Source: a virus. From it: 64,000 bases of DNA. Position 1 is the stretch's first letter; each line of letters opens with the position of its first letter. Below are positions 3,265 to 27,333 of this stretch, one piece after another. The translations under genes and the position numbers were made by a program. The stretch covers positions 1-64,000 of IMG/VR virus record IMGVR_UViG_3300046791_000095. One strand, given 5' to 3'. The notes under the pieces were generated by a model, which saw only the letters and a list, made by a program, of their open reading frames with translations, was not told where the DNA came from and did not search any database.

Positions 3265-3692
3265 GCGAGGAACCGATCATCGACCCGAAGGAAGCGAATG
3301 GCTGGATCGGGGTGGACTTCGATGCCACCCTCGCCGAGTATCACGGGTGGGACATCTCGAAGGGCGCCCTCGGACCGGCGATTCCCAGGATGATGGCCCG
3401 TGTGCGTGCGTGGCTCAAGGCTGGTCGCGAGGTGCGCATCATGACGGCCCGCACTGGCGAGGAGCAGGAGCTTCTCATCCAGACGTGGCTCCATGACAAC
3501 GGGCTGCCCAAGCTCCCGATCACGAATCAGAAGGATCGGATGATGTACCAGCTTTGGGATGACCGCGCGATTCAGGTCCGCTCGAACACGGGCGAGACTG
3601 TGGACGAGGAAGTCATCCGACTGAAGCGGGAACTCAAGCGGGTCTACGACTCGCTGCGTGCGTTCAAGCAGACGCTGGAGGAGATCGAATGA
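3261..3692 (+). CDS. HAD-superfamily phosphatase-like protein
   Basis: DFDATLAEY (residues 19-27) is the HAD motif I (DxDxT/V) carrying the nucleophile Asp. A Thr-containing motif II follows (VRIMTART, about 57-64) and Asp residues of motif IV lie in LWDDRAIQV. The C-terminal 30 residues form a predicted helix. The family hydrolyses phosphate esters in the cytoplasm through a phospho-aspartate. Lying next to the CCA-adding enzyme, an end-processing role in RNA repair is conceivable but unproven. Confidence 0.75.
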   Translation: MSEEPIIDPKEANGWIGVDFDATLAEYHGWDISKGALGPAIPRMMARVRAWLKAGREVRIMTARTGEEQELLIQTWLHDNGLPKLPITNQKDRMMYQLWDDRAIQVRSNTGETVDEEVIRLKRELKRVYDSLRAFKQTLEEIE

Positions 3693-4423
3693 AACTCTAC
3701 CTCGTAGGCGGGGCGGTTCGTGACTACGCCCTCGGTGTGAAGGGGACGAAGGACTACGACTTCGCTGTCGAGGCGGATTCGTACAAAGACATGGTTGTTG
3801 GCTTGCGCGCTGCTGGTGCAACCATCTGGCAGGAGCGACTTGAGTTCGTGACGGTCCGGGCTCAGTTCCCTGTGGTGCTCGGCTCTTTCGGCGGGCTGCT
3901 CCCGACGGGCAGTCGTGTCGTTGATGCTGACTTCACGCTCTGCCGGGCTGAGACTCAGTATTCGGACCTACGTCATCCTGACACGGTGACGCCTGCCACT
4001 CTCGATGTCGATCTCAGCCGGCGTGACTTCACGATGAATGCGATGGCTGTGGGTGAGAATGGTCAGTGGCACGATCCGTACAACGGATGGGATGACGCTG
4101 AGGATCATGTCCTCAAGACGGTCGGACATCCTCAAGACCGGTTCACCGAGGACCCACTTCGGATGCTGCGGGCTCTCCGCTTCGCCATCAAGTACAACCT
4201 GCGCTTCAACGCTACTCTCGCGGCTGTGCTGGACGACAGGAGGCTTCTACGCGGGATCGAGACTCTTCCGGCCGAGCGGGTGCGCGAGGAGTTGAACAAG
4301 GCTTTCAGTGCGGACAGCTACCGCACGATGTATTACCTGATGACCCGCTTCCCGGAACTTGGTGCAGCCGTCGCCACCTATCACCCGAACCTCAAGCTCA
4401 AGGTGGTTCAGGAGGGAATGTGA
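3689..4423 (+). CDS. cca: CCA-adding enzyme / tRNA nucleotidyltransferase
   Basis: Class II nucleotidyltransferase of the poly(A) polymerase head family. The motifs are in order: GGAVRD (7-12), the catalytic KDYDF (21-25), RRDFTMNAMA (111-120), the EDPLRMLRALRFA ribose/base-recognition block (154-166) and ERVREELNKAF (196-206). It would add or repair the 3' CCA of tRNAs. At 244 residues it has head and neck but little of the body and tail of the roughly 400-residue cellular enzymes. With phage tRNAs, RtcB and a second RNA ligase in the same window, a tRNA-maintenance role is likely. Confidence 0.9.
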   Translation: MKLYLVGGAVRDYALGVKGTKDYDFAVEADSYKDMVVGLRAAGATIWQERLEFVTVRAQFPVVLGSFGGLLPTGSRVVDADFTLCRAETQYSDLRHPDTVTPATLDVDLSRRDFTMNAMAVGENGQWHDPYNGWDDAEDHVLKTVGHPQDRFTEDPLRMLRALRFAIKYNLRFNATLAAVLDDRRLLRGIETLPAERVREELNKAFSADSYRTMYYLMTRFPELGAAVATYHPNLKLKVVQEGM

Positions 4424-4805: not shown

Positions 4806-5159
4806 ATGCCATCACAACATCCGGGCGATGACGGGCGGAGCGCGTGGAACCGTGGCCCCGAGATCATCGCTGCTGAGCAACGCATCCTGACGTACGCCGA
4901 CGCACTCCTCTCGTGGTGTCGGGCTTCTACGTTCGATACGCAGTACATGGTCAAGCTCGCAGACTTCTTCACGCACACCCGCAAGTACAATCCTGGGGGT
5001 GAGCCTGTGCCGATGGGTGAGACCACGGCATGGATGCTTGAACGGCTTGATCCCGACGCGAACCGTTTTCTTGTTGAACTCATGAGGGCTGCATGGGAAC
5101 TGAGATGCTGGAAGGAACGCTACGGAGAGATCACGAAGGAGGAGAAGGATCGGCTATGA
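4806..5159 (+). CDS. Hypothetical protein (117 aa)
   Basis: The start MPSQHPG follows GGGGAGGTATCC and the promoter-like element. The protein is soluble and mostly predicted helical (MVKLADFFTHTRKY, RFLVELMRAAWELRCWKERY) with an acidic-basic C-terminus. No recognised domain. The downstream phosphoesterase start overlaps its stop (ATGA). Confidence 0.65.
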   Translation: MPSQHPGDDGRSAWNRGPEIIAAEQRILTYADALLSWCRASTFDTQYMVKLADFFTHTRKYNPGGEPVPMGETTAWMLERLDPDANRFLVELMRAAWELRCWKERYGEITKEEKDRL

Positions 5160-5899
5160 AGCGGACCTTCGTTGTCGGTGACGTGCATGGCAGCATCGAG
5201 CGTCTCATCGAACTGCTCCTCAAAGCTGGATGCATGCGAGAGACCTACCCGAACTCTGACATGCAGATTGACTGGGATGGCTACAAGATGAATCCCGGGA
5301 TCGAGGTCGTGCAGGTGGGCGACCTTGGTGACTTCGGACAGCAGGACCCGACGCGTGACTGGATGTGCTACACGTTCGCGAGAGCACTCGGCATCACCGT
5401 CCTCATGGGCAATCACGACGCCGCGTGCTTCGACACCTTCTCTCATTCGTTCCGAGGTTATCGTACACCTTCATTCCAAACGCTCATGGTGATGCGAGAG
5501 GTCAGTCCCAAGCTGGCAGTAGCGCGCAGTGGGTACCTGATCACTCACGCCGGTCTCCATCCGTCCTACATGCCGGTGAAAGCTACGCCGGAAGAACTGG
5601 CTCTGGCCTTGAGTTCAGCGGGTCAGCTTCCTGTCGTCACGGACATCGGCCCTCCTCGGGGTGGGTTCGCGAAGCAGGGTGGAATCCTCTGGCGTGATGA
5701 TCGCGAGGACCTCTACGACGTACCGCAGATTTACGGACACACCTCGGGCATGATGCGCAAGCACGGACGATCCTACTGTATCGACGTGGGCAACAAGACC
5801 AACGGGTCTCTCGCCGGCATCTGGCTCGACACGCAGCAGATCGTCGCCATTGGTCCCGATGCGAAGATGCACGAGACCCCTTTCCCGGAGGATGCGTGA
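5156..5899 (+). CDS. Calcineurin-like metallophosphoesterase
   Basis: The dimetal motifs are in order: GDVHG (residues 8-12), GDLGDFG (about 57-63), GNHDA (about 85-89), a His in THAGLH (about 131-136) and GHTSG near the end. This is the bacterial Ser/Thr phosphatase / diadenosine tetraphosphatase type, 247 residues, as in phage lambda phosphatase. The substrate may be a phosphoprotein or a dinucleoside polyphosphate; the sequence does not decide. It overlaps its neighbours at both ends, in the same operon as the helicase. Confidence 0.85.
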   Translation: MKRTFVVGDVHGSIERLIELLLKAGCMRETYPNSDMQIDWDGYKMNPGIEVVQVGDLGDFGQQDPTRDWMCYTFARALGITVLMGNHDAACFDTFSHSFRGYRTPSFQTLMVMREVSPKLAVARSGYLITHAGLHPSYMPVKATPEELALALSSAGQLPVVTDIGPPRGGFAKQGGILWRDDREDLYDVPQIYGHTSGMMRKHGRSYCIDVGNKTNGSLAGIWLDTQQIVAIGPDAKMHETPFPEDA

Positions 5900-7113
5900 A
5901 GAAGTCTCATCCACTCCTCGTCGGAATCGAGAACGTCAAACCCTACAAGCTGACCGAGGGCCACGAGATGTACAGCGTGCGCCCTCCTGCCATGCAGATC
6001 GAGGACTTCCTCCCTGTTGGCGGCGTGATGGGCATGACCTCGTATCCCGGCGTAGGCAAGACCTGGCTCGCTCTGGAGATCGCCCGGTCCGTAGCATCAG
6101 GCACACCGTTCCTCGGCCGATACAAGGCGATGAGGGGCGGTGTTCTTTTCGTTGGTTCCGACTCCTCTCTCTACGACTACGCTCGACAGTGGACGCGCCT
6201 CACGCGCAACACCGAGGACGCAGTCAACGTGTTCGAGCCGGTTCGCTTCCTCGTGCAGTCCACCTTCATGTTCGAGGACCGCGACGAGATCAGGAAGCTC
6301 ATCCGCACGCACCAGAAGTTCGAGTGGGGCGAGACTACCATCGGTCCGAAGGGACCTGAACGCGAGCATGGCTTCCACACGCTCGTCTTCGACACGGTCT
6401 CTCGCCTCACTCGCGCGAATCAGAACGACAACACCGAGATGGAAGAGGTCTTCCGGAACATCCGCATGCTGGCCGAGGCGACCGACTGTGCCATCGTCCT
6501 GCTGCACCACAACTCGAAGAAGAGCGAGTACAACGACGGCTCCGATTGGCGTGGTGCCATGTCGCAGATCGGCGCCCTCGATTCGTGGGTGCAACTCTCG
6601 CCGCACCGGAAGGACAAGCACCTCGTCGGAATCCAGTTCAAGAAGTTCCGTGGCATCACGCCACCCGACTTCTCTTACCGCATGGCAGTGAGTGATCCGG
6701 CGTCCGCGAGTCTCTCCATCACGGATGAGCCCGTGACTACCGCACAGAAGATGCAGCATGACGTGGTCGCAGACGCCGTGAAGGAGTTCATCGTACAGCA
6801 TCCGGGAAGACGGGCGTGCGAGATTCGCGATGCTCTGTGGCCCAAGTTTCAGGTTGGCGTTGCTGAGGTCAATGGCACGACGACGGCCTTCCCGGTGATC
6901 AAGGATTTCACCACCGCAGTGAACAACCGCCTCGCAGCGATGATGCAGGTACAAGTGATCAAGCGTCGGCAGAACAATGAGGGCAAGGCGGTCTACACCG
7001 TCGTTACTCCACAATCAACCGAGGGAGCCCCGGCTCCTGCTACGGGAGAACAGAGTGAAGTCAGAACATCTCGGCGTCGTCGTCGTAAGGCTGCAAGTCC
7101 CGCGTCTGCATGA
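5896..7113 (+). CDS. RecA-fold replicative helicase (RepA/DnaB-like)
   Basis: Walker A is MTSYPGVGKTW (about residues 47-57), Walker B is HTLVFDTVSRL (about 160-170), and a downstream IVLLHHNSKK fits the motif H3 region of hexameric RecA-fold helicases such as plasmid RSF1010 RepA. The C-terminal 110 residues look like a winged-helix-type segment and end in a basic RRRRRKAA tail. It would unwind the replication fork. GTG start, overlapping the phosphoesterase stop; the next gene starts inside its 3' end. Confidence 0.75.
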   Translation: MKKSHPLLVGIENVKPYKLTEGHEMYSVRPPAMQIEDFLPVGGVMGMTSYPGVGKTWLALEIARSVASGTPFLGRYKAMRGGVLFVGSDSSLYDYARQWTRLTRNTEDAVNVFEPVRFLVQSTFMFEDRDEIRKLIRTHQKFEWGETTIGPKGPEREHGFHTLVFDTVSRLTRANQNDNTEMEEVFRNIRMLAEATDCAIVLLHHNSKKSEYNDGSDWRGAMSQIGALDSWVQLSPHRKDKHLVGIQFKKFRGITPPDFSYRMAVSDPASASLSITDEPVTTAQKMQHDVVADAVKEFIVQHPGRRACEIRDALWPKFQVGVAEVNGTTTAFPVIKDFTTAVNNRLAAMMQVQVIKRRQNNEGKAVYTVVTPQSTEGAPAPATGEQSEVRTSRRRRRKAASPASA

Positions 7114-7963
7114 TGGGCATCGGTACCTGCTGAACGCCGTCACGGCGATTCATGAGGATGTCCTTGTTGTCATCGGCGAGTCTGAGGCACGCGGAACGAT
7201 GAAGAACCCGTTGCCCTTCTCTGTCCGTGAAGCTATGGTCAGAGAAGCATACCCGAAGGTGAAAGTCGTGCAGTTGCGTGACTGCTCCTCAGACGAGAAG
7301 TGGTCGTACAATCTCGATACGCGAATTTGGGACGAACGAAGCGGATACGAACTTGGAAAAGGAGCGATGCTGTACGGTGGCCGTGACAGTTTCCTCAATC
7401 ATTACCAAGGAGAGTATCCGACGTTTGAACTTCCTCCGGTGCGGCCGATGTCAGGCACAGAAATTCGTGAGGCTGTTTGCCAGCGGGATAGTGAAGAGTT
7501 CCGTGCCGGAATGATCTTCGCAGCGAAGAATCGCTATCCCACATCGTACCAGACGGTGGACGTAGCCATCTTGAATCAAAGCGAGCAGATTCTCCTCGGA
7601 AGAAAGAAGGGTGATGGCGACGCGTGGAGATTCATTGGGGGCTTCGTTAGTCCCAAGGACCCCACGCTTGAATACACGGTGATGCGTGAAGTACGAGAAG
7701 AGACTGGTCTAGAGGTCGGGTCTCCCCGCTACATCGGTTCTTTCCAGGTGGAGGACTACCGATACCCTTCGGACGGTCCAGATAGAATCATGACTGCCCT
7801 CTTCACCGTCAAGTACGTATTCGGTTCACCCGAGCCGTCTGACGACATCGACGATTGTTGTTGGTTCTCGTTACATGATCTTCCTGACATCGTTCCACAA
7901 CATCATCCGCTGGTGCATCTACTCCTCGGCTATCGTGCCATGAAAGGACTACCCGATGCTTGA
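7055..7963 (+). CDS. Bifunctional NMN adenylyltransferase / Nudix hydrolase
   Basis: Residues 1-170 resemble the NadM-type nucleotidyltransferase: VVVRLQVPRLHDGHRYLL carries the HxGH signature and RPMSGTEIREAV the C-terminal ISxTxIR-type motif. Residues 170-302 are a Nudix domain with box GGFVSPKDPTLEYTVMREVR followed by EETGLEVG. NadM-Nudix fusions occur in some bacteria and large phages. The first domain makes NAD+ from NMN and ATP; the second hydrolyses ADP-ribose-like compounds. GTG start after GGGAGAACAGA, with a 59-nt overlap with the helicase gene. It precedes NAMPT, so the two form an NAD+ salvage pair. Confidence 0.85.
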   Translation: MKSEHLGVVVVRLQVPRLHDGHRYLLNAVTAIHEDVLVVIGESEARGTMKNPLPFSVREAMVREAYPKVKVVQLRDCSSDEKWSYNLDTRIWDERSGYELGKGAMLYGGRDSFLNHYQGEYPTFELPPVRPMSGTEIREAVCQRDSEEFRAGMIFAAKNRYPTSYQTVDVAILNQSEQILLGRKKGDGDAWRFIGGFVSPKDPTLEYTVMREVREETGLEVGSPRYIGSFQVEDYRYPSDGPDRIMTALFTVKYVFGSPEPSDDIDDCCWFSLHDLPDIVPQHHPLVHLLLGYRAMKGLPDA

Positions 7964-9332
7964 GAACAACATCATCCTCGCGACCGACAGCTACAAGGTC
8001 ACCCACTGGAAGCAGTATCCGAAGGGAACGCAGCGTGTGTTCTCCTTTCTCGAATCTCGGGGTGGCGAGTTCAAGACCACGACCTTCTTCGGTCTCTCCT
8101 ACATCATCAAGCGGTTCCTCGCTGGCAAGGTTGTCACTCACGAGAAGATCGCGGAGGCGCGCGAGTTCTTCAAGCTTCACTTCGGTGACGACACCCTCTT
8201 CAATCTGGACGACTGGAACTACATCCTCGCCATGCATGGTGGACAACTCCCGGTCTCCATCCGTGCCATCCCTGAAGGCACTACCGTTCCCACTGGTAAC
8301 GTCCTCATGACCATCGAGAACACGGACCCGAACGTGCCGTGGCTCACGAACTACCTAGAAACGATCCTCATGCAGGTGTGGTACCCGACGACCGTCTGCA
8401 CCCAGTCGCGTGCGATGAAGCAGGACATCAGTGAGGCAATGAGGTTGTCGGGCGCCGACATGGCTGGTCTCCCGTTCAAGCTCCACGACTTCGGCTACCG
8501 GGGCAGTACTTCGTTCGAGTCGGCCGGCATCGGCGGCTGCGCGCACCTCGTGAACTTCATGGGCACCGACACGATGGCTGCCTTGCAGGTCGCTCGAAAC
8601 TACTACAACGAGCCGATGGCTGGCTTCAGTATCCCCGCTGCCGAGCACAGTACGATGACGGCATGGGGAAAGACGAACGAGGCCGAGGCGTACCGGAACA
8701 TGCTGGAGCAGTTCCCGAAGGGCTTGGTTGCGGTCGTCAGCGATAGCTACGACATCTATCACGCGTGCAGTGAAATCTGGGGTGACGAGTTGAAGGATCA
8801 GGTCCTCAACCGTGACGGTGTCGTCATCATCCGCCCGGACAGTGGTGATCCTGTCAAGGTCATCCTGAGTCTGCTGAGCATCCTGGGTGACAAGTTCGGG
8901 GTCTCGACGACGAGTACGGGCGACAGAGTTCTGAATCCGAAGGTGCGCCTGATTCAGGGCGACGGGATCGACCGAGAGATGTTGACTCACATCCTCGATG
9001 CAATGCTCGATGAGAAGTGGTCCATCGACAACATCGCGTTCGGTTCTGGTGGTGGCCTACTCCAGAAGGTGAACCGCGATACCTGCAAGTTCGCTCTGAA
9101 GTGCAGTGCCATCGAAGTCAATGGCAAGTGGCTTGACGTGATGAAGGACCCGATCACGGACAGTGGGAAGCGGTCGAAGGCGGGCCGGCTGATCCTCGTC
9201 AAGGATAAGGGTGGATACCGGACTGTGCAGGAAGGGAGTAGTGGCTCGAACCTTCTCGAAGAGGTCTTCCGTAACGGTCAGCACATCCTTCCTCCGACGC
9301 TGTCGGGGATTCGGGAGCGAGCTTCGCGCTAA
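7956..9332 (+). CDS. nadV: Nicotinamide phosphoribosyltransferase (NAMPT)
   Basis: Full-length (458 residues) member of the NAMPT/NadV family, which makes NMN from nicotinamide and PRPP. Conserved blocks are DSYKVTHWKQYP (about 11-22), DFGYRGSTSFESAGIGG, the catalytic-His region IPAAEHSTMTAW, VSDSYDIYHA, the phosphate-binding RPDSGDP and FGSGGGLLQKVNRDT. The start overlaps the upstream NMN adenylyltransferase by 8 nt, so the two steps nicotinamide to NMN to NAD+ are translationally coupled. Confidence 0.93.
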   Translation: MLENNIILATDSYKVTHWKQYPKGTQRVFSFLESRGGEFKTTTFFGLSYIIKRFLAGKVVTHEKIAEAREFFKLHFGDDTLFNLDDWNYILAMHGGQLPVSIRAIPEGTTVPTGNVLMTIENTDPNVPWLTNYLETILMQVWYPTTVCTQSRAMKQDISEAMRLSGADMAGLPFKLHDFGYRGSTSFESAGIGGCAHLVNFMGTDTMAALQVARNYYNEPMAGFSIPAAEHSTMTAWGKTNEAEAYRNMLEQFPKGLVAVVSDSYDIYHACSEIWGDELKDQVLNRDGVVIIRPDSGDPVKVILSLLSILGDKFGVSTTSTGDRVLNPKVRLIQGDGIDREMLTHILDAMLDEKWSIDNIAFGSGGGLLQKVNRDTCKFALKCSAIEVNGKWLDVMKDPITDSGKRSKAGRLILVKDKGGYRTVQEGSSGSNLLEEVFRNGQHILPPTLSGIRERASR

Positions 9333-9869: not shown

Positions 9870-10097
9870 ATGAGCAACTCTCAGCAGTCGTACCAGAGCG
9901 GAGGCGTCGGGTTCACCGGCCTTCTCGCCGTTGCGTTCATCGTCCTGAAGCTCATCGGAGTCATTCACTGGTCGTGGTGGTGGGTCACTGCTCCCCTCTG
10001 GGGCGGTCTTGCGATCTTCATCGCGATCATGATCGTCCTGCTTCTCGTCTTGGGCATTGGCGAACTCATTGGTGGACATCAGCGTCCGCCTCGGTAA
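9870..10097 (+). CDS. Two-helix membrane protein (75 aa)
   Basis: Start MSNSQQS follows GGAGTAAAATC. Two hydrophobic segments (GFTGLLAVAFIVLKLIGVI; LAIFIAIMIVLLLVLGIG) flank the aromatic loop HWSWWWVTAPLW. This layout resembles the small phage membrane proteins annotated as transmembrane Fragile-X-F. Probably in the inner membrane, role unknown. It precedes rtcB by 13 nt. Confidence 0.65.
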   Translation: MSNSQQSYQSGGVGFTGLLAVAFIVLKLIGVIHWSWWWVTAPLWGGLAIFIAIMIVLLLVLGIGELIGGHQRPPR

Positions 10098-10110
10098 GAA
10101 AGGAAATTCT

Positions 10111-11400
10111 GTGAGCAACATTCGCTGGTTCACCGACATCAACGAGGTTGAGCCCGAAGCGCGTGCGCAGGTGGAACGGACGGCGAGCATGCCCTTCGTC
10201 AAAGGCGTAGCCGTCATGCCTGATGTTCACTTCGGCAGAGGCTCGACTGTGGGCACCGTTGTGGCTACGAAGGGTGCAGTCATGCCTGCCTGTGTGGGCG
10301 TGGACATCGGCTGTGGGATGATCGCGGTCCGGACGAATCTCAAGCCCGAGGCTGTGCGCCCGCATCTCGTGAAGATTCGTGAGGGCATCGAACGACGCAT
10401 CCCGCTCGGGATCGGCCAGCGGGGGATGAACTCGAAGATTCTCCCGACGGCCGAGTCACGCATTGCGATGCTCGAAGCTGAGGCTGCGCACGCGTGGGCC
10501 GATGTGAATCACATGAACGCCCGCGCGAAGGACTGGCGGAGTCAGTTGGGCTCCCTCGGTGGGGGTAATCACTTCATCGAGGTGTGCGTGGGACGCTCCT
10601 TCGACAACTACGACGCCGATAGTGTTGGATTTCCTTTTGGCCCGGAGGAGGTCTGGGTCATCCTTCACTCTGGCTCGCGCGGTGTTGGCAACAAGACGGG
10701 AACTCACTGGACCCAGGTTGCCAAGAAGCAGGCGGCCCGGTACAAGTACGACACGTACCTGCCTGATGCTGATCTCGCGTACCTTGTGCAGGAGAGCGAG
10801 GAGTACCATCAGTACATGAAGGAGTTGTACTGGTGTCAGTCCTTCGCGCAACTCAACCGTGACGAGATGATGGATCGGGTTATCAATGAACTGTCTTACA
10901 CACTGTGCGGTGGATACGGAACTCCTGCTCTTCCGTTTGACATCGATCTGCGGAAGGACATGGAGTCTGACAGGCTCATTGAAGTCGAGCGCATCAACTG
11001 TCATCATAACTACGTCAGCAAGGAGCATCATGATGGCGACAACGTCCTCATCACCCGGAAGGGCGCAATACTGGCGTCTGATGGAACGCGCGGGCTCATT
11101 CCCGGTTCGATGGGGGCGAGCAGTTTCATCGTTACGGGCCTTGGGCATTCCGGAGCGTACTGTAGCGCACCTCATGGGGCTGGCCGCAGAATGTCTCGAA
11201 CGGCAGCACGAAAGCAGTTCACTCTCGAAGGAGTCACGCAAGAGATGGCGTCGCTCGGCATTGAAGCCCGAGTCCGCGAAGCAATCGTTGACGAAGCTCC
11301 GGGCGCGTACAAGAACATCGACATCGTGATGTTCGATGCGCGGGAGCTTGTGCGTCCGACGCACGTCCTGAATCAACTCATCAGCGTGAAGGGAGACTGA
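10111..11400 (+). CDS. rtcB: RtcB-type RNA ligase
   Basis: Family hallmarks of the GTP- and Mn-dependent 3'-phosphate/5'-OH RNA ligase: MPDVHFGRGSTVG, ACVGVDIGCGM (metal-binding Cys and Asp), LGSLGGGNHFIE, LHSGSRGVG, HHNYVSKEHH, and SAPHGAGRRMSR with the guanylylated-His region. GTG start after AAGGAAATTCT; 429 residues, near the bacterial length. It joins ends left by metal-independent ribonucleases, including many anticodon nucleases and toxins. It lies close to a second RNA ligase and shares an operon direction with cca. Confidence 0.93.
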   Translation: MSNIRWFTDINEVEPEARAQVERTASMPFVKGVAVMPDVHFGRGSTVGTVVATKGAVMPACVGVDIGCGMIAVRTNLKPEAVRPHLVKIREGIERRIPLGIGQRGMNSKILPTAESRIAMLEAEAAHAWADVNHMNARAKDWRSQLGSLGGGNHFIEVCVGRSFDNYDADSVGFPFGPEEVWVILHSGSRGVGNKTGTHWTQVAKKQAARYKYDTYLPDADLAYLVQESEEYHQYMKELYWCQSFAQLNRDEMMDRVINELSYTLCGGYGTPALPFDIDLRKDMESDRLIEVERINCHHNYVSKEHHDGDNVLITRKGAILASDGTRGLIPGSMGASSFIVTGLGHSGAYCSAPHGAGRRMSRTAARKQFTLEGVTQEMASLGIEARVREAIVDEAPGAYKNIDIVMFDARELVRPTHVLNQLISVKGD

Positions 11401-11402
11401 GG

Positions 11403-11594
11403 ATGAACTGCCCGGGCGACCGGCACAACTGGCGCAGAATCTTCTGGTGGACATCACGGCTCCTTTCGTGCGTCGCTTGCGGAAGAATTGCTGTGAAGAC
11501 GAGTCAGGTCACGTACAGTATGTTCAAGCACGAGGCTGTGCAGATCGGTGGCTACGCACCCGACCACACCTCTTCTTGGCACAGAGGAGCGTAA
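11403..11594 (+). CDS. Hypothetical CxxC protein (63 aa)
   Basis: Start two bases after rtcB, with GGGAGACTGAGG upstream. Contains CVACGRI and several Trp and His residues (HNWRRIFWW). It may bind one metal. No family recognised. It lies between the two RNA ligases. Confidence 0.5.
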   Translation: MNCPGDRHNWRRIFWWTSRLLSCVACGRIAVKTSQVTYSMFKHEAVQIGGYAPDHTSSWHRGA

Positions 11595-11595
11595 G

Positions 11596-12615
11596 ATGTC
11601 TTCTTGGACTTCATACCCGAAGGTGTGGTCGATGGGCCACCGGCTCGTGCAGGACCTCCTGCTAGATGACGTGATCGTCGAGGAGAAGGTAGATGGGAGT
11701 CAGTTCTCGTTTGGCCTCATCGATGGAGAACTCAAGATCAAGTCGAAGGGCGCGATCATCTACCCCGATGCTCCTCCTGCCATGTTTCGGGGCGCAGTGG
11801 AAACAGTCCTCTCGATCCAGGACAAGCTCATTCCTGGGTGGACGTATCGCGCTGAAGTACTCAGCCGGCCGAAGCACAACGTACTGGCCTACGACCGCGT
11901 CCCGCAGGGGAACCTCATCCTATTCGACATCGCGGTCGGTCTCGAAGACTACATGCTGCGTAGCATGAAAGTAGCAGAAGCTCAGGTGCTCGGTCTGGAG
12001 ATCGTGCCTGTCGTCTACACGGGCAAGGTCACCTCGGCTGAGCAGGTGATCGCGCTCCTTGACCGTACCAGCATCCTCGGCGGCCAGAAGATCGAAGGCG
12101 TCGTCGTCAAGAACTACAGCCGCTTTGGAATCGACGGCAAGCCGCTCATGGCGAAGTACGTCGCCGAGGCGTTCAAGGAGGTCCACAAGGGTGAGTGGCG
12201 GAAGGAGAACCCGACAAACAACGATGTCGTGACTCTCCTCGTCAACTCGCTCCGCACTCCTGCACGGTGGTCCAAGGCGGTGCAGCATCTCCGCGAAGCC
12301 GGGACGCTCACCGACTCTCCGAAGGACATCGGTCCTCTGCTGCATGAGATGCAGAAGGACGTGGAGGAGGAAGAGAAGCAGTTGATCATCGAGCGGCTCT
12401 ATAAGTGGGCGTGGCCCCATATCCGTCGAGGGATCACCCACGGGTTCCCGGAGTGGTACAAGGAGCAGCTTCTCGTGAAGCAGTTCGAGACGATGCGGGA
12501 TCAAGGGATTGTCGTGGATGATGCTGTCCGCTCGCTCGCTGACATTCCCCTTGGTGTCCGTGAGCCTTGGTGTACGTGCCGCGAAGGACACGAGTGTGAA
12601 GGACACCGCGCATGA
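11596..12615 (+). CDS. ATP-dependent RNA ligase (Rnl2-like)
   Basis: Nucleotidyltransferase-superfamily ligase. Motif I is EEKVDGSQF with the AMP-accepting Lys at about residue 31; motif III-like segments are in YRAEVLSRPK and LILFDIAVG; motif IV is EGVVVKNY (167-174) and motif V includes LMAKYV (about 185-190). The ~120-residue C-terminal region is helical and ends CTCREGHECEGH. It seals 3'-OH/5'-phosphate ends, complementary to RtcB. RBS GAGGAGCGTAAG. Substrate preference (nicked tRNA is likely) is inferred from family and context. Confidence 0.85.
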   Translation: MSSWTSYPKVWSMGHRLVQDLLLDDVIVEEKVDGSQFSFGLIDGELKIKSKGAIIYPDAPPAMFRGAVETVLSIQDKLIPGWTYRAEVLSRPKHNVLAYDRVPQGNLILFDIAVGLEDYMLRSMKVAEAQVLGLEIVPVVYTGKVTSAEQVIALLDRTSILGGQKIEGVVVKNYSRFGIDGKPLMAKYVAEAFKEVHKGEWRKENPTNNDVVTLLVNSLRTPARWSKAVQHLREAGTLTDSPKDIGPLLHEMQKDVEEEEKQLIIERLYKWAWPHIRRGITHGFPEWYKEQLLVKQFETMRDQGIVVDDAVRSLADIPLGVREPWCTCREGHECEGHRA

Positions 12616-15015: not shown

Positions 15016-15770
15016 CCATCGAAGACAACACCCCTGTTGATGAGACTCCCCAGGTCGCTGAGGTTCCGGCTTCTCTCGCTGGCGTTGACGCGGAGAAGCT
15101 CGCAGCCCTGAAGGAGAAGCTCAAGAAGTTCACTGCCCGCGCTGAGGAGCAGCCCGTCGAGGCAGCGCCCACGGAAGAGGAGACCAAGGCTCCTGTCAAC
15201 GAAGGCAAGGATGTGGACTGGAGCGAGTACGACCTCGACTTCAACGTGCGCCATCTGTACCCTCAGGCGAAGTTCCGTATGACTCCGCAGGGTCCGAAGT
15301 GGGTCGTGCTCGTGGACGAGTTCCTGTCTACCACGCGTAACTTCGGCAGTCATGGGAAGACGGTCAAGGCGCTCAAGGGTGACGGCGAGGAGCCGCTCAA
15401 CATGGGCGAGTATCTCGGCAATCTTCTGAACTCCCCCGAAGGCTGGCGCCTCGTATCGGTGCTCCCCATGAGCGGTGGACAGGCAGGCATCATGCTTCAG
15501 CGGGCTGTGCCGGTGGTCCTGCCGGACCCGGTGCCCCTGAAGAAGGAGACGGAAGTCGAAGCTCCGGTCGACGCGGAACTCAAGACGGTCGAGGACGCTG
15601 CTCTCGACTTCATGCGCACTGAGGGGATCGATGAACCGATCCTAATGGAAGAGGAAGTTGAAGGCGCGCGTGATGCGGAGCATTCGACCGAGTCCTTCGA
15701 TCCTGTGGAGTCTCCCGGCATGACGGACCTGATGGTGGCTCCGGAGAGCATTCCTGATCAGGAGGTCTGA
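15012..15770 (+). CDS. Acidic hypothetical protein (252 aa)
   Basis: A folded core (about residues 75-175: DLDFNVRHLYPQAKFRM, PKWVVLVDEFLS, WRLVSVLPMSGGQAGIMLQR) is flanked by long acidic, Pro/Glu/Ala-rich arms that look disordered. The C-terminal tail repeats EEEVEGA-type acidic stretches. It lies directly before the PD-(D/E)XK-like protein, with which it may work in replication or recombination. No family recognised. Confidence 0.6.
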   Translation: MTIEDNTPVDETPQVAEVPASLAGVDAEKLAALKEKLKKFTARAEEQPVEAAPTEEETKAPVNEGKDVDWSEYDLDFNVRHLYPQAKFRMTPQGPKWVVLVDEFLSTTRNFGSHGKTVKALKGDGEEPLNMGEYLGNLLNSPEGWRLVSVLPMSGGQAGIMLQRAVPVVLPDPVPLKKETEVEAPVDAELKTVEDAALDFMRTEGIDEPILMEEEVEGARDAEHSTESFDPVESPGMTDLMVAPESIPDQEV

Positions 15771-16690
15771 TGTACCGGGTGAACGTATCGAGCGTTCAGG
15801 ACTTCATGCAGTGCCGCTTCCGCTGGTGGGCAAAGTGGATCATGAACAGAGTGCCGGTGGTGTCCGCGCCGGCACTCGATGCGGGCAAGCTCCTTCATCA
15901 GGCGTTCGAGCTTCATGAGAAAACAGGAGACCCACTCGACCTGAGTCTCAAAGCCTGTTGTCTTGCTTTCCGTACCAAGATTCCGGATGAGCATCCTGCG
16001 GCTCATGTCAACCTCTACAAGTCCGTAGAGACGATGGAAGACCTGATCGAAGCGATGCCGCTCTGGAAGGACAAGTTCCCGATCACGGAGGTCCTCGAAG
16101 TCGAGCAGCCCTCCGAATGGCAAGACCCAGTACAGCTAGATGTGATGTGGCTAGTGCGACCCGACAAAGTCATCGTCCTGAACAAGCGTATCTGGCACCA
16201 GCAACGACGAGGGCTCGCTGCTTCTGTGAACTTCGGGATGTACACTCGTCTTGCAAAGCGTCACTACCACGAGCATCTCTACGGTCTTGTGCTCAGTGAC
16301 AAGTACAAGAGTAGGAGACTCAAGTACGGTGGAACTCTCTTCGATCTCACGCGCAAGCTGAAGTTCAGGACGAACGTGGGGAAGAAGAACGAGGCGACGA
16401 AGACGGCTGAGGAGATGTTCTATCAGCAGCCGGTGACGTATGACCTCAAGAGTCCGCTGCACAAGTCAGTGATGTGGGCTCTCCGCGAGCATGTTCGAGG
16501 TATGCGGGAGGTCACGCGTAACTGGGAAGAGAAACAGATCATCCCGGCGCCCAACGACAAGATGAATGGAGGATACGGTGGCAACAGCGAAGACCCATAC
16601 TTCCGCGTCCTCATCGGGGAGATCGGGCTCGACAACGACGAGGTCTTCAAAGCGCGGGAAGACACCTACGCCAACCTCGTCACGGAGTGA
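15770..16690 (+). CDS. PD-(D/E)XK nuclease-like (Cas4/RecB-type) protein
   Basis: N-terminal SSVQDFMQCRFRWWAKWI and DAGKLLHQAFELHEK (GxxxHxxxE) match the opening of RecB/Cas4-type nucleases, and KYGGTLFDLTRKLKF matches the segment seen in phage members. The catalytic part is less clear: LDVMWLVRPDKVIVLNKRIW has D and K in register, but the expected acidic residue before the Lys is Asn. It may therefore be a divergent or inactive exonuclease. It sits in the replication/recombination cluster upstream of the primase-like gene. Confidence 0.6.
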   Translation: MYRVNVSSVQDFMQCRFRWWAKWIMNRVPVVSAPALDAGKLLHQAFELHEKTGDPLDLSLKACCLAFRTKIPDEHPAAHVNLYKSVETMEDLIEAMPLWKDKFPITEVLEVEQPSEWQDPVQLDVMWLVRPDKVIVLNKRIWHQQRRGLAASVNFGMYTRLAKRHYHEHLYGLVLSDKYKSRRLKYGGTLFDLTRKLKFRTNVGKKNEATKTAEEMFYQQPVTYDLKSPLHKSVMWALREHVRGMREVTRNWEEKQIIPAPNDKMNGGYGGNSEDPYFRVLIGEIGLDNDEVFKAREDTYANLVTE

Positions 16691-26269: not shown

Positions 26270-26512
26270 ATGTCCTACGTCTGGATCAAACTCGTGACGG
26301 CGTGTGGCTGTTCAAAGGAGTGGTTGAGTCCAGAGAACTGGACCAGATCAAAGTACGTTGTTTCACTCCCGACACCTGTCAAAATAAGTGGAGGAGAACC
26401 TGATCTAGCGAACACCTTTCCTCGGACTCGTACTTTCAAATTGTACAACGAGTACTGGGATAATGTTCGGAAGATTCGTGTTGTCGTCTATGAAGAGTCT
26501 TTAGGGGAGTAG
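26270..26512 (+). CDS. Hypothetical protein overlapping tRNA-Pro (80 aa)
   Basis: A small protein with CGCSKEWLSP near the N-terminus and a beta-rich C-terminus (KIRVVVYEESLGE). Its last 10 bases form the acceptor strand of the following tRNA, so processing of the tRNA would cut the end of this coding sequence. No family recognised. Confidence 0.55.
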   Translation: MSYVWIKLVTACGCSKEWLSPENWTRSKYVVSLPTPVKISGGEPDLANTFPRTRTFKLYNEYWDNVRKIRVVVYEESLGE

Positions 26513-26578
26513 CGCAGAGGCCAGCGTGCCCGTTTTGGAAACGGGCGGTCGTGGGTTCGAATCCCACCTCCCCTGCCA
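26503..26578 (+). tRNA. tRNA-Pro (UGG)
   Basis: Acceptor AGGGGAG pairs with CTCCCCT, D arm GCGC/GCGT, anticodon arm CCCGT-TTTGGAA-ACGGG with anticodon TGG, and T arm GTGGG-TTCGAAT-CCCAC. The 3' CCA is encoded (26576-26578). 76 nt, all canonical. The 5' end overlaps the upstream coding sequence. Confidence 0.95.
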
Positions 26579-26581
26579 AAG

Positions 26582-26659
26582 TGCGAGGGATACCATAGGT
26601 GAAAAGGCCGAGCCGGTCAGGGGAAAGTTGTGGTAGCGAGTACCCCCACCTCCCTCGCA
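26582..26659 (+). ncRNA. tRNA-sized structured RNA unit A
   Basis: TGCGAGGG pairs with CCCTCGCA at the two ends (8 bp), continued by AGGTG/CACCT after a 7-nt 5' bulge. The inside holds a GGTA/TACC hairpin. 78 nt, starting four bases after the tRNA-Pro CCA. No anticodon arm or TTCRA loop is found and CCA is absent, so it is not a normal tRNA. Confidence 0.5.
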
Positions 26660-26664
26660 TTATC

Positions 26665-26738
26665 AGTGTGTGCTTTCCAGAAACCACCACGCAGAAGCGT
26701 GAGCGAACTGGATTAGGCTCCAGAGGGAGCAGCACACT
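26665..26738 (+). ncRNA. tRNA-sized structured RNA unit B
   Basis: A 10-bp end helix (AGTGTG-TGCT with AGCA-G-CACACT, one bulged G) encloses two perfect hairpins, CACGC-AGAA-GCGTG and CTGGA-TTAGGC-TCCAG. 74 nt. It has three-way-junction geometry without tRNA signatures. It is separated from its neighbours by 5 and 7 nt. Confidence 0.55.
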
Positions 26739-26745
26739 ACAGCGA

Positions 26746-26825
26746 CCCAAGAGTAAACGTGACGGGCTAAAGCAATCGCGAGGTCGCGGGCGTAACCCGC
26801 GCTAAGCCCGCAGACCTATCTTGGG
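26746..26825 (+). ncRNA. tRNA-sized structured RNA unit C
   Basis: A 7-bp end helix CCCAAGA/TCTTGGG, a second helix CGGGCT/AGCCCG and an inner 6-bp hairpin CGCGGG/CCCGCG with loop CGTAA. 80 nt, six bases before tRNA-Leu. No T-loop or anticodon loop. Very stable by inspection. Confidence 0.55.
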
Positions 26826-26831
26826 CATCTT

Positions 26832-26914
26832 AGCTCCCTGATGGAATGCAGACATGCCAGCCTTAGAAGCTGGTGCCTTCGGGCGTGAGGGTTCGAATCC
26901 CTCGGGAGCTACCA
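26832..26914 (+). tRNA. tRNA-Leu (UAG)
   Basis: Acceptor AGCTCCC/GGGAGCT, anticodon arm CCAGC-CTTAGAA-GCTGG with anticodon TAG, a long variable arm around GCCTTCGGGC as expected for a class II leucine tRNA, T arm GAGGG-TTCGAAT-CCCTC, discriminator A and encoded CCA. 83 nt. Confidence 0.93.
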
Positions 26915-26916
26915 TC

Positions 26917-26991
26917 GTGACGGAGGGTGAAGAGTGGAACCGGAGGGCTGTGAATCCTCTTTAGCGGATGCGACTTCCGCCCGTCACTCCA
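26917..26991 (+). tRNA. tRNA-His (GUG)
   Basis: Acceptor GTGACGG/CCGTCAC, D arm closed by GGT/ACC, anticodon arm GAGGG-CTGTGAA-TCCTC with anticodon GTG, T arm GCGGA-TGCGACT-TCCGC, and encoded CCA. Oddities: the T-loop has G where nearly all tRNAs have T55, the discriminator is T, and there is no genomic G-1/C73 pair expected of bacterial tRNA-His. It starts two bases after tRNA-Leu. Confidence 0.8.
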
Positions 26992-27297: not shown

Positions 27298-27333
27298 AAA
27301 GCCCCTCATGTCCTTGCGGACGTGGGGGGCTTT
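27298..27333. terminator. Strong bidirectional intrinsic terminator
   Basis: A 16-bp stem (AAAGCCCCTCATGTCC with GGACGTGGGGGGCTTT, two G-U pairs) closes on a TTGC loop. A-rich sequence precedes it and T-rich sequence follows it, so it can end transcription from both sides. It marks the convergence of the rightward and leftward transcription blocks. Confidence 0.92.

What the first reader, a model, noticed from the sequence alone, without database searches (positions are those of the whole stretch)
26503..26991. Six-unit tRNA array in which three units are tRNA-sized but not tRNAs
tRNA-Pro, units A, B and C (78, 74 and 80 nt), tRNA-Leu and tRNA-His follow one another with gaps of 2-7 nt. A, B and C each have a 7-10-bp end-pairing helix and internal hairpins but lack anticodon arms, TTCRA loops and CCA. 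They look like members of the array rather than spacers. Possible explanations: decoys for anticodon nucleases, degenerate tRNAs, or new small RNAs released by tRNA processing enzymes.
Basis: partly seen in the sequence, partly recalled or inferred. Interest (0 to 1): 0.85.

Follow-up and report, generated by a model that had tools for sequence, protein, structure and literature searches.

The report
Structured non-tRNA units in phage tRNA array
A phage genome packs three tRNA-sized folded RNAs of unknown kind between ordinary tRNA genes, in a phage lineage that repeatedly fills this spot with odd tRNA imitations and also carries its own tRNA-repair enzymes; it hints at an RNA weapon or shield in the phage-host fight over tRNAs, but the three RNAs themselves remain unexplained.

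Summary
Between tRNA-Pro(UGG) and tRNA-Leu(UAG) lie three units (A 82, B 77, C 80 nt), each closed by a 7-11 bp end-to-end helix. This tiling occurs in 0 of 1000 dinucleotide shuffles; folding z-scores are -3.9, -4.0 and -2.6. They are not tRNAs in normal or circularly permuted order, match no Rfam family, and no relative was found in 50,697 phage records (blastn) or in related loci (A and B also by covariance model). The last unit is a genuine but non-canonical tRNA-His (T-loop UGCGACU); covariation across five phages proves its cloverleaf.

In many relatives, found through DNA polymerase, the same intergenic place holds other non-tRNA units: conserved tRNA-like RNAs without an ordinary anticodon arm, and circularly permuted tRNA-like RNAs with the topology of bacterial Y RNA (YrlA), yet no Ro60 gene. 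Two relatives keep such units without any tRNA that ARAGORN detects. The genome also encodes RtcB, an RNA ligase and a CCA-adding-type enzyme.

Most likely A-C are processed small structured RNAs serving the phage side of tRNA-directed conflict. Array membership is well supported; the function is inference. Known kind, new variant; A-C remain orphans.

The parts
26503..26578 (+). tRNA-Pro (anticodon TGG)
   Evidence: ARAGORN; Rfam RF00005 66.9 bits
26580..26661 (+). Unit A: 82-nt structured non-tRNA unit, 11-bp end helix, inner helix GGTG/CACC and two hairpins
   Evidence: MFE -36.2, z -3.90, 0/200 shuffles; tiling; no tRNA in any permutation; no relative by covariance model
26665..26741 (+). 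Unit B: 77-nt structured non-tRNA unit; end helix GTGTGCT/AGCACAC, helix TCCAG/CTGGA enclosing hairpin CACGC-AGAA-GCGTG, hairpin GCTCC-AGAG-GGAGC
   Evidence: z -4.01, 0/200; tiling; no tRNA in any permutation; no convincing relative by covariance model
26746..26825 (+). Unit C: 80-nt structured non-tRNA unit, end helix CCCAAGA/TCTTGGG; inner fold not well determined (centroid differs from MFE)
   Evidence: z -2.64, 3/200; tiling; no tRNA in any permutation
26832..26914 (+). tRNA-Leu (anticodon TAG)
   Evidence: ARAGORN; Rfam 51.7 bits
26917..26991 (+). Non-canonical tRNA-His (anticodon GTG): T-loop TGCGACT, D-loop GAAGAGTGGA, T73, encoded CCA; invisible to ARAGORN and Rfam
   Evidence: 20 of 20 pairs kept in five phages, 13 with changes on both sides; homologues in L006, L007, L017/L022, L018
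26435..26464 (+). Weak sigma-70-like promoter match upstream of the array
   Evidence: Consensus scan, 1 found against 0.7 expected; not evidence of function
27298..27333 (+). Intrinsic-terminator-like hairpin downstream of the array
   Evidence: MFE z -5.15 in the sliding scan
3689..4423 (+). CCA-adding-enzyme-type nucleotidyltransferase, short (244 aa)
   Evidence: PF01743 1e-18; NCBIfam CCA tRNA nucleotidyltransferase 8e-37, below cut-off; PDB 6ibp CCA-adding enzyme 6e-27
10057..11400 (+). RtcB RNA ligase
   Evidence: PF01139 1.5e-109;
11548..12615 (+). RNA ligase (PF09414 family)
   Evidence: 4.3e-13;

Best explanation
Units A, B and C are separate small structured RNAs, transcribed with the tRNAs and released by the tRNA-processing cuts at the flanking tRNA ends. 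They belong to a set of fast-changing non-tRNA and pseudo-tRNA RNAs that this phage lineage keeps at this place. Their most likely job is on the phage side of tRNA-directed conflict: stable RNAs that occupy host tRNA-acting proteins (nucleases or processing and quality-control factors), while the phage's RtcB, RNA ligase and CCA-adding-type enzyme repair or finish its real tRNAs. Shown: the units exist, fold, tile the gap and are not tRNAs; relatives hold other structured units in the same place; the repair genes are present. Inferred: expression, processing, and the decoy or sink role.
For: Tiling 0/1000 shuffles and unit z-scores -3.9, -4.0, -2.6. No terminator match inside the units on the + strand and one after the array. 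The same intergenic place in relatives holds structured non-tRNA units: an X type (L006, L018, L020) with acceptor, D- and T-arms but a central arm with a 17-base, pseudoknot-capable loop instead of an anticodon arm, 97% of cells paired, 4 pairs changed on both sides; a K type (L018, L019, L073) with a GCGA-capped helix; permuted tRNA mimics (L003/L005, L073, L008/L010, L026, L013). L018 and L020 have no ARAGORN tRNA yet keep such units. tRNA-repair genes in this genome and relatives. Precedent that phage tRNAs answer tRNA-targeting defence: PMC10264068, PMC11555353.
Against: No homologue of A, B or C anywhere searched, so no covariation supports their folds; the fold of C is ambiguous. B folds even better as the minus strand (z -5.3), so folding does not prove the transcribed strand. 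No expression data. Nothing in A-C resembles a tRNA, so the decoy role rests on context alone.
Confidence: 0.45

Rival explanations
1. A-C are extremely derived tRNA mimics of the Y-RNA/permuted-tRNA kind: an end-paired stem plus a compact domain that still fits a tRNA-binding protein although no canonical arm can be read.
For: Relatives' units with end stem, T-arm, closed acceptor hairpin and D-arm occupy the same place. Unit B has hairpin CACGC-AGAA-GCGTG followed directly by a D-arm-like AGCG-AACTGGATTA-GGCT (direct reading). The lineage tolerates odd elbows (tRNA-His).
Against: No rotation of A, B or C is called a tRNA (0 of about 22,800 tries), whereas the permuted units L003, L008, L033 and L073 give hundreds of calls in the same kind of test. 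No TTCRA loop, no Ro60/TROVE gene, no YrlA match.
Confidence: 0.2
2. A-C are structured spacers: stable stems that insulate neighbouring tRNA precursors or guide RNase cuts, with no function of their own after release.
For: They sit exactly between tRNAs and have no conserved sequence in relatives. In L003 the Pro-Leu gap of 92 nt folds no better than shuffles (z 0.01), so not every gap in these arrays is a structured unit.
Against: Leu and His in the same array need only 2 nt between them, so three elaborate units are not needed as spacers. X, K and permuted units in relatives are conserved or keep their pairing.
Confidence: 0.22
3. A-C are remnants of decayed or inserted elements (decayed tRNA genes or DNA-level palindromes).
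For: Rapid turnover of array content between relatives.
Against: Decay would not leave precise end helices tiling the gap, nor A and B folding further beyond chance than the real tRNAs. No copies of A-C elsewhere in the genome.
Confidence: 0.1

Closest known systems
T4 stable RNAs C and D (species 1 and 2) in the T4 tRNA cluster (own knowledge; not found in the searchable papers)
   Same: Non-tRNA small RNAs encoded among phage tRNA genes, function unknown
   Different: Different sizes and, as far as Rfam tells, unrelated; the T4 RNAs were isolated as stable RNAs, A-C are known only from sequence
Bacterial and phage Y RNA YrlA (Rfam RF02553)
   Same: Paired ends plus a compact domain; in relatives' units the domain is T-arm, closed acceptor arm, D-arm, the arms described for YrlA (PMC8394870)
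   Different: A-C have no tRNA-like domain; no Ro60/TROVE gene in 20 records of this lineage and more distant relatives, while 16 of 22 records fetched with or near permuted units of other phages do have it
ROOL and GOLLD RNAs near phage tRNA islands (PMC12286853)
   Same: Structured non-tRNA RNAs beside phage tRNA genes
   Different: Far larger RNAs; no Rfam match here
Permuted tRNA genes of algae and archaea (own knowledge)
   Same: Order 3' half then 5' half in relatives' units L003, L033, L073, L008
   Different: A-C do not have it; maturation to tRNA is not demonstrated for the relatives' units
Phage tRNAs that evade tRNA-targeting defence (PMC10264068, PMC11555353)
   Same: A phage RNA set plausibly shaped by tRNA-directed defence; repair genes in the same genome
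   Different: Those are tRNAs; A-C have no anticodon arm and cannot decode

Membership tests
tRNA (A, B, C) | Cloverleaf with T-loop, anticodon loop and acceptor stem, recognised by ARAGORN or Rfam RF00005 | tested here: not met
   every rotation and trimming also negative
tRNA (His unit) | Cloverleaf kept by compensatory changes | tested here: met
   100% of cells paired, 13 of 20 pairs with changes on both sides in five phages
tRNA (His unit) | Canonical T-loop TTCRANN | tested here: not met
   T-loop TG(C/G/T)GA(C/G)T, and D-loop GAAGAGT(G/C)GA, in all five
Circularly permuted tRNA (A, B, C) | Becomes a tRNA when the ends are joined and the chain reopened | tested here: not met
   positives L003, L008, L033, L073
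Bacterial Y RNA (YrlA) | 5' and 3' ends pair in a basal stem | tested here: met
   A 11 bp, B 7-9 bp, C 7 bp
Bacterial Y RNA (YrlA) | tRNA-like domain with T, acceptor and D arms, or Rfam RF02553 match | tested here: not met
   (no YrlA match)
Bacterial Y RNA (YrlA) | Ro60 (TROVE) gene in the same genome | tested here: not met
   PF05731 absent at E<=10 in G000 and 19 other records; found in 16 of 22 comparison records. A Ro60 too divergent for PF05731 is not excluded
ROOL/GOLLD | Rfam model match | tested here: not met
T4 RNA C/D-like stable RNAs of tRNA clusters | Encoded among phage tRNA genes and not a tRNA | tested here: met
T4 RNA C/D-like stable RNAs of tRNA clusters | Accumulates as a processed stable RNA | not testable with these tools
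   Needs RNA from infected cells

The most novel reading that the evidence does not exclude
This phage lineage runs an RNA programme of its own in the tRNA array: real tRNAs with a rebuilt elbow, circularly permuted tRNA genes that are closed by the phage's RtcB or RNA ligase and finished by its CCA-adding-type enzyme without Ro60, and a set of wholly new tRNA-sized RNAs (A-C and counterparts) that act on the host's tRNA-handling proteins.
Probability: 0.13. Interest if true: 0.88.

Novelty: new variant of a known kind. Interest (0 to 1): 0.55.

Why it matters
Why phages carry tRNA arrays has been argued for decades, and the stretches between the tRNAs are usually passed over as spacers. Here those stretches hold structured RNAs that standard finders miss, in a lineage with its own tRNA-repair genes. 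If A-C are expressed and act on host tRNA nucleases or tRNA-processing proteins, phage arrays would be defence-evasion loci as much as decoding aids. The YrlA-shaped units of relatives, in records where no Ro60 gene is found, would also separate tRNA mimicry from the Ro60 partner.

Tried and rejected
Ordinary tRNAs and permuted tRNAs for A-C: rejected. Known Rfam RNA: rejected at E<=10 (only chance or tRNA-overlapping matches). Ro60-bound Y RNA for this lineage: rejected for lack of TROVE and YrlA matches. I first took the permuted units found by pattern scan in unrelated phages (L154-L172) for unreported permuted tRNA genes; 16 of 22 records in that comparison carry a TROVE gene and several units match YrlA at E 1e-8 to 1e-5, below the gathering score, so most are probably Y RNAs, a known kind. 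A general link between permuted units and phage RNA ligases: not seen in those phages. Homologues of A-C through the exonuclease gene, blastn in phages, nhmmer, single-sequence covariance models of A and B: none; no such model was made for C. An X-type search of IMG/VR with one exact core pattern gave only the three known. Coding function: no start codon with a ribosome-binding-site-like sequence was found in or near the units. Tandem identical tRNAs can imitate a permuted unit; the L003 and L073 units directly follow the CCA of another tRNA and L033 has no tRNA halves in its flanks, so they are not that artefact.

Full report
What was claimed and whether it is there. ARAGORN finds tRNA-Pro(TGG) 26503-26578 and tRNA-Leu(TAG) 26832-26914 and nothing else in the window; Rfam agrees. 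The sequence between them is almost fully taken up by three end-paired units: A 26580-26661, B 26665-26741, C 26746-26825. Because 7-bp helices at tRNA-like spacing are common by chance (20 found against 18.6 in shuffles), I tested the tiling itself: three consecutive end-paired units filling the 253-nt gap occur in 0 of 1000 dinucleotide shuffles. Folding z-scores of the units are -3.90, -4.01 and -2.64; tRNA-Pro scores -2.65.

What A, B and C are not. None contains a TTCRA T-loop, a hairpin with a seven-base anticodon-like loop or a CCA end. To cover tRNAs in unusual order I joined the ends of each unit, reopened it at every inner position, and ran ARAGORN on about 22,800 variants with trimmed ends: no tRNA was called for A, B or C, nor for shuffled controls. 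Rfam at E up to 10 gives only tRNA-overlapping or chance matches. There is no terminator match among them on the + strand, and one strong terminator-like hairpin after the array at 27298-27333. No start codon with a ribosome-binding-site-like sequence was seen.

The His unit. 26917-26991 is missed by ARAGORN and Rfam. Homologues lie in L006, L007, L017/L022 and L018. In five distinct sequences all 20 cloverleaf pairs are kept and 13 show changes on both sides (0 of 500 shuffles). Anticodon GTG is invariant, but the T-loop is TGNGANT instead of TTCRANN and the D-loop is GAAGAGTSGA. So it is a real tRNA-His-shaped RNA with a rebuilt elbow, not an ordinary tRNA.

Relatives. The window is part of a 64,672-bp IMG/VR virus record. 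Its family A DNA polymerase found relatives with a similar gene order, and a conserved holin-like gene found more. In many of these, the intergenic place between the exonuclease gene and the convergent terminator holds tRNAs and other structured units; in others (for example L009, L025) no such unit was noticed. A, B and C have no homologue there by blastn or nhmmer, nor A and B by single-sequence covariance models, nor among 50,697 phage records by blastn. But other non-tRNA units are conserved. Type X (L006 17160-17272, L018 7604-7712, L020 15794-15901) has an acceptor helix, a 6-bp D-arm, a T-arm with TTCGACT, and in place of the anticodon arm a helix with a 17-base loop that can pair with downstream sequence; 97% of cells pair and four pairs change on both sides (only three sequences). 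Type K (L018 7495-7602, L019 4436-4569, L073 3330-3461) has a GCGA-capped helix whose stems change in step (direct reading). L018 and L020 have no ARAGORN tRNA at all and still keep such units, L018 together with the non-canonical His unit. This is the best evidence that non-tRNA units at this place are functional in their own right.

Permuted units in relatives. Several relatives carry units ordered anticodon-stem 3' strand, variable loop, T-arm, acceptor 3' strand, loop, acceptor 5' strand, two bases, D-arm, anticodon-stem 5' strand: L003 11500-11581 (and L005), L073 about 3542-3609, L008/L010, L026, L013, and in a distant phage (28% polymerase identity) L033 13539-13608. A strict scanner scores L033, L003/L005 and L073 at 19.9-22.3, against at most 16.1 in 3.9 Mb of simulated sequence. 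When rotated, ARAGORN at default settings calls tRNAs, most often Thr(TGT) for L073, Gly(CCC) for L033, Leu(CAA) for L008 and Phe or Ser for L003. L026 and L013 are weaker: they were read partly by eye, L026 is not called after rotation, and L013's anticodon stem has only four pairs. Across six units 119 of 120 listed stem positions pair, but the segments were chosen by pairing; the informative control is that swapping partner strands between phages lowers pairing to 0.50-0.67 in three of the four helices. These are the arms described for the tRNA-like domain of the bacterial Y RNA YrlA, whose ends pair in a basal stem (PMC8394870).

Are they Y RNAs? As a control I scanned IMG/VR for the same order and looked at named phages. 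Units in unrelated phages share a TACTTC motif just inside the basal stem; in Streptomyces phage Satis such a unit lies directly beside a gene annotated as Ro-like RNA binding protein. Sixteen of 22 records in this comparison have a TROVE gene, and YrlA matches reach E 2.7e-8, below the gathering score. So most of those are probably Y RNAs, a known kind. The window's lineage is different: no TROVE gene in 20 records, no TACTTC motif before a T-arm in the records of this lineage searched for it, and no YrlA match to the permuted units of L003, L008, L033 and L073. They resemble YrlA in shape but cannot be filed as Ro60-bound Y RNAs.

Gene context. The window encodes RtcB, a PF09414 RNA ligase, a short CCA-adding-type nucleotidyltransferase and a metallophosphoesterase with a weak match to bacterial Pnkp. 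RtcB, ligase and nucleotidyltransferase recur in relatives. [quoted passage not shown]

Mechanism. I commit to this reading: A-C are excised, stable, structured RNAs made from the array transcript and belonging to a fast-evolving set of RNAs that engage host tRNA-handling proteins, working beside the repair enzymes. Shown: existence, folding beyond chance, tiling, not tRNAs, structured counterparts of other sequence in relatives, repair genes. Inferred: transcription, excision, target. Structured spacers, very derived tRNA mimics, and decayed elements are the rivals.

Verdict. Non-tRNA RNAs in phage tRNA clusters are a known kind (T4 RNAs C and D, from own knowledge; ROOL and GOLLD, PMC12286853), so this is a new variant, with the odd tRNA-His and the permuted units without a detectable Ro60 gene as the most unusual parts.

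Noticed in passing
window 26917-26991 and L006, L007, L017, L022, L018: tRNA-His(GTG) with a conserved non-canonical elbow (T-loop TGNGANT, D-loop GAAGAGTSGA), invisible to ARAGORN and Rfam but supported by strong covariation.
   Followed up: yes
L003 11500-11581, L073 3542-3609, L008 9631-9747, L026 5468-5578, L013 12291-12395, L033 13539-13608: Circularly permuted tRNA-like units in phage tRNA arrays without a detectable Ro60 gene; rotated forms are called tRNA-Thr (L073), -Gly (L033), -Leu (L008), -Phe/Ser (L003).
   Followed up: yes
L154, L155, L157, L163, L164, L171, L172; phages Satis (L239), Olaya (L242), Phredrick (L244): Unannotated Y-RNA-like units (YrlA topology), mostly with a conserved TACTTC motif (not seen in Phredrick), several in a row with different anticodon arms, mostly in records with a TROVE gene and below Rfam's gathering score.
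   Followed up: partly
L240 (Citrobacter phage Moogle), L241 (Mycobacterium phage Snenia), L243 (Vibrio phage vB_VpaP-MS02): Permuted tRNA-like units with another flanking motif (about ACAGCAAnnnAAT) in records where PF05731 finds no TROVE gene; Snenia's neighbour is annotated only as RNA-binding protein.
   Followed up: no
L006 17160-17272, L018 7604-7712, L020 15794-15901: Conserved tRNA-like RNA with acceptor, D- and T-arm but a pseudoknot-capable arm where the anticodon arm should be.
   Followed up: yes
L032 5307-5432 and 6564-6714: Two units of about 120-150 nt in one array with a shared GAGAACGATAT..CCTCTG start and different closing stems, apparently paralogous non-tRNA RNAs.
   Followed up: no
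L017 15960-16113 and L022 about 15760-15917: A further shared intergenic unit of about 150 nt upstream of the tRNAs.
   Followed up: no
window 6977-9332: A gene with NUDIX and weak cytidylyltransferase matches next to a nicotinamide phosphoribosyltransferase (PF04095), that is, an apparent NAD+ salvage pair on a phage, possibly against NAD+-depleting defence.
   Followed up: no
window 5093-5899: Metallophosphoesterase with a weak match to bacterial Pnkp, in the same early region as RtcB and RNA ligase; may belong to the RNA-repair set.
   Followed up: no
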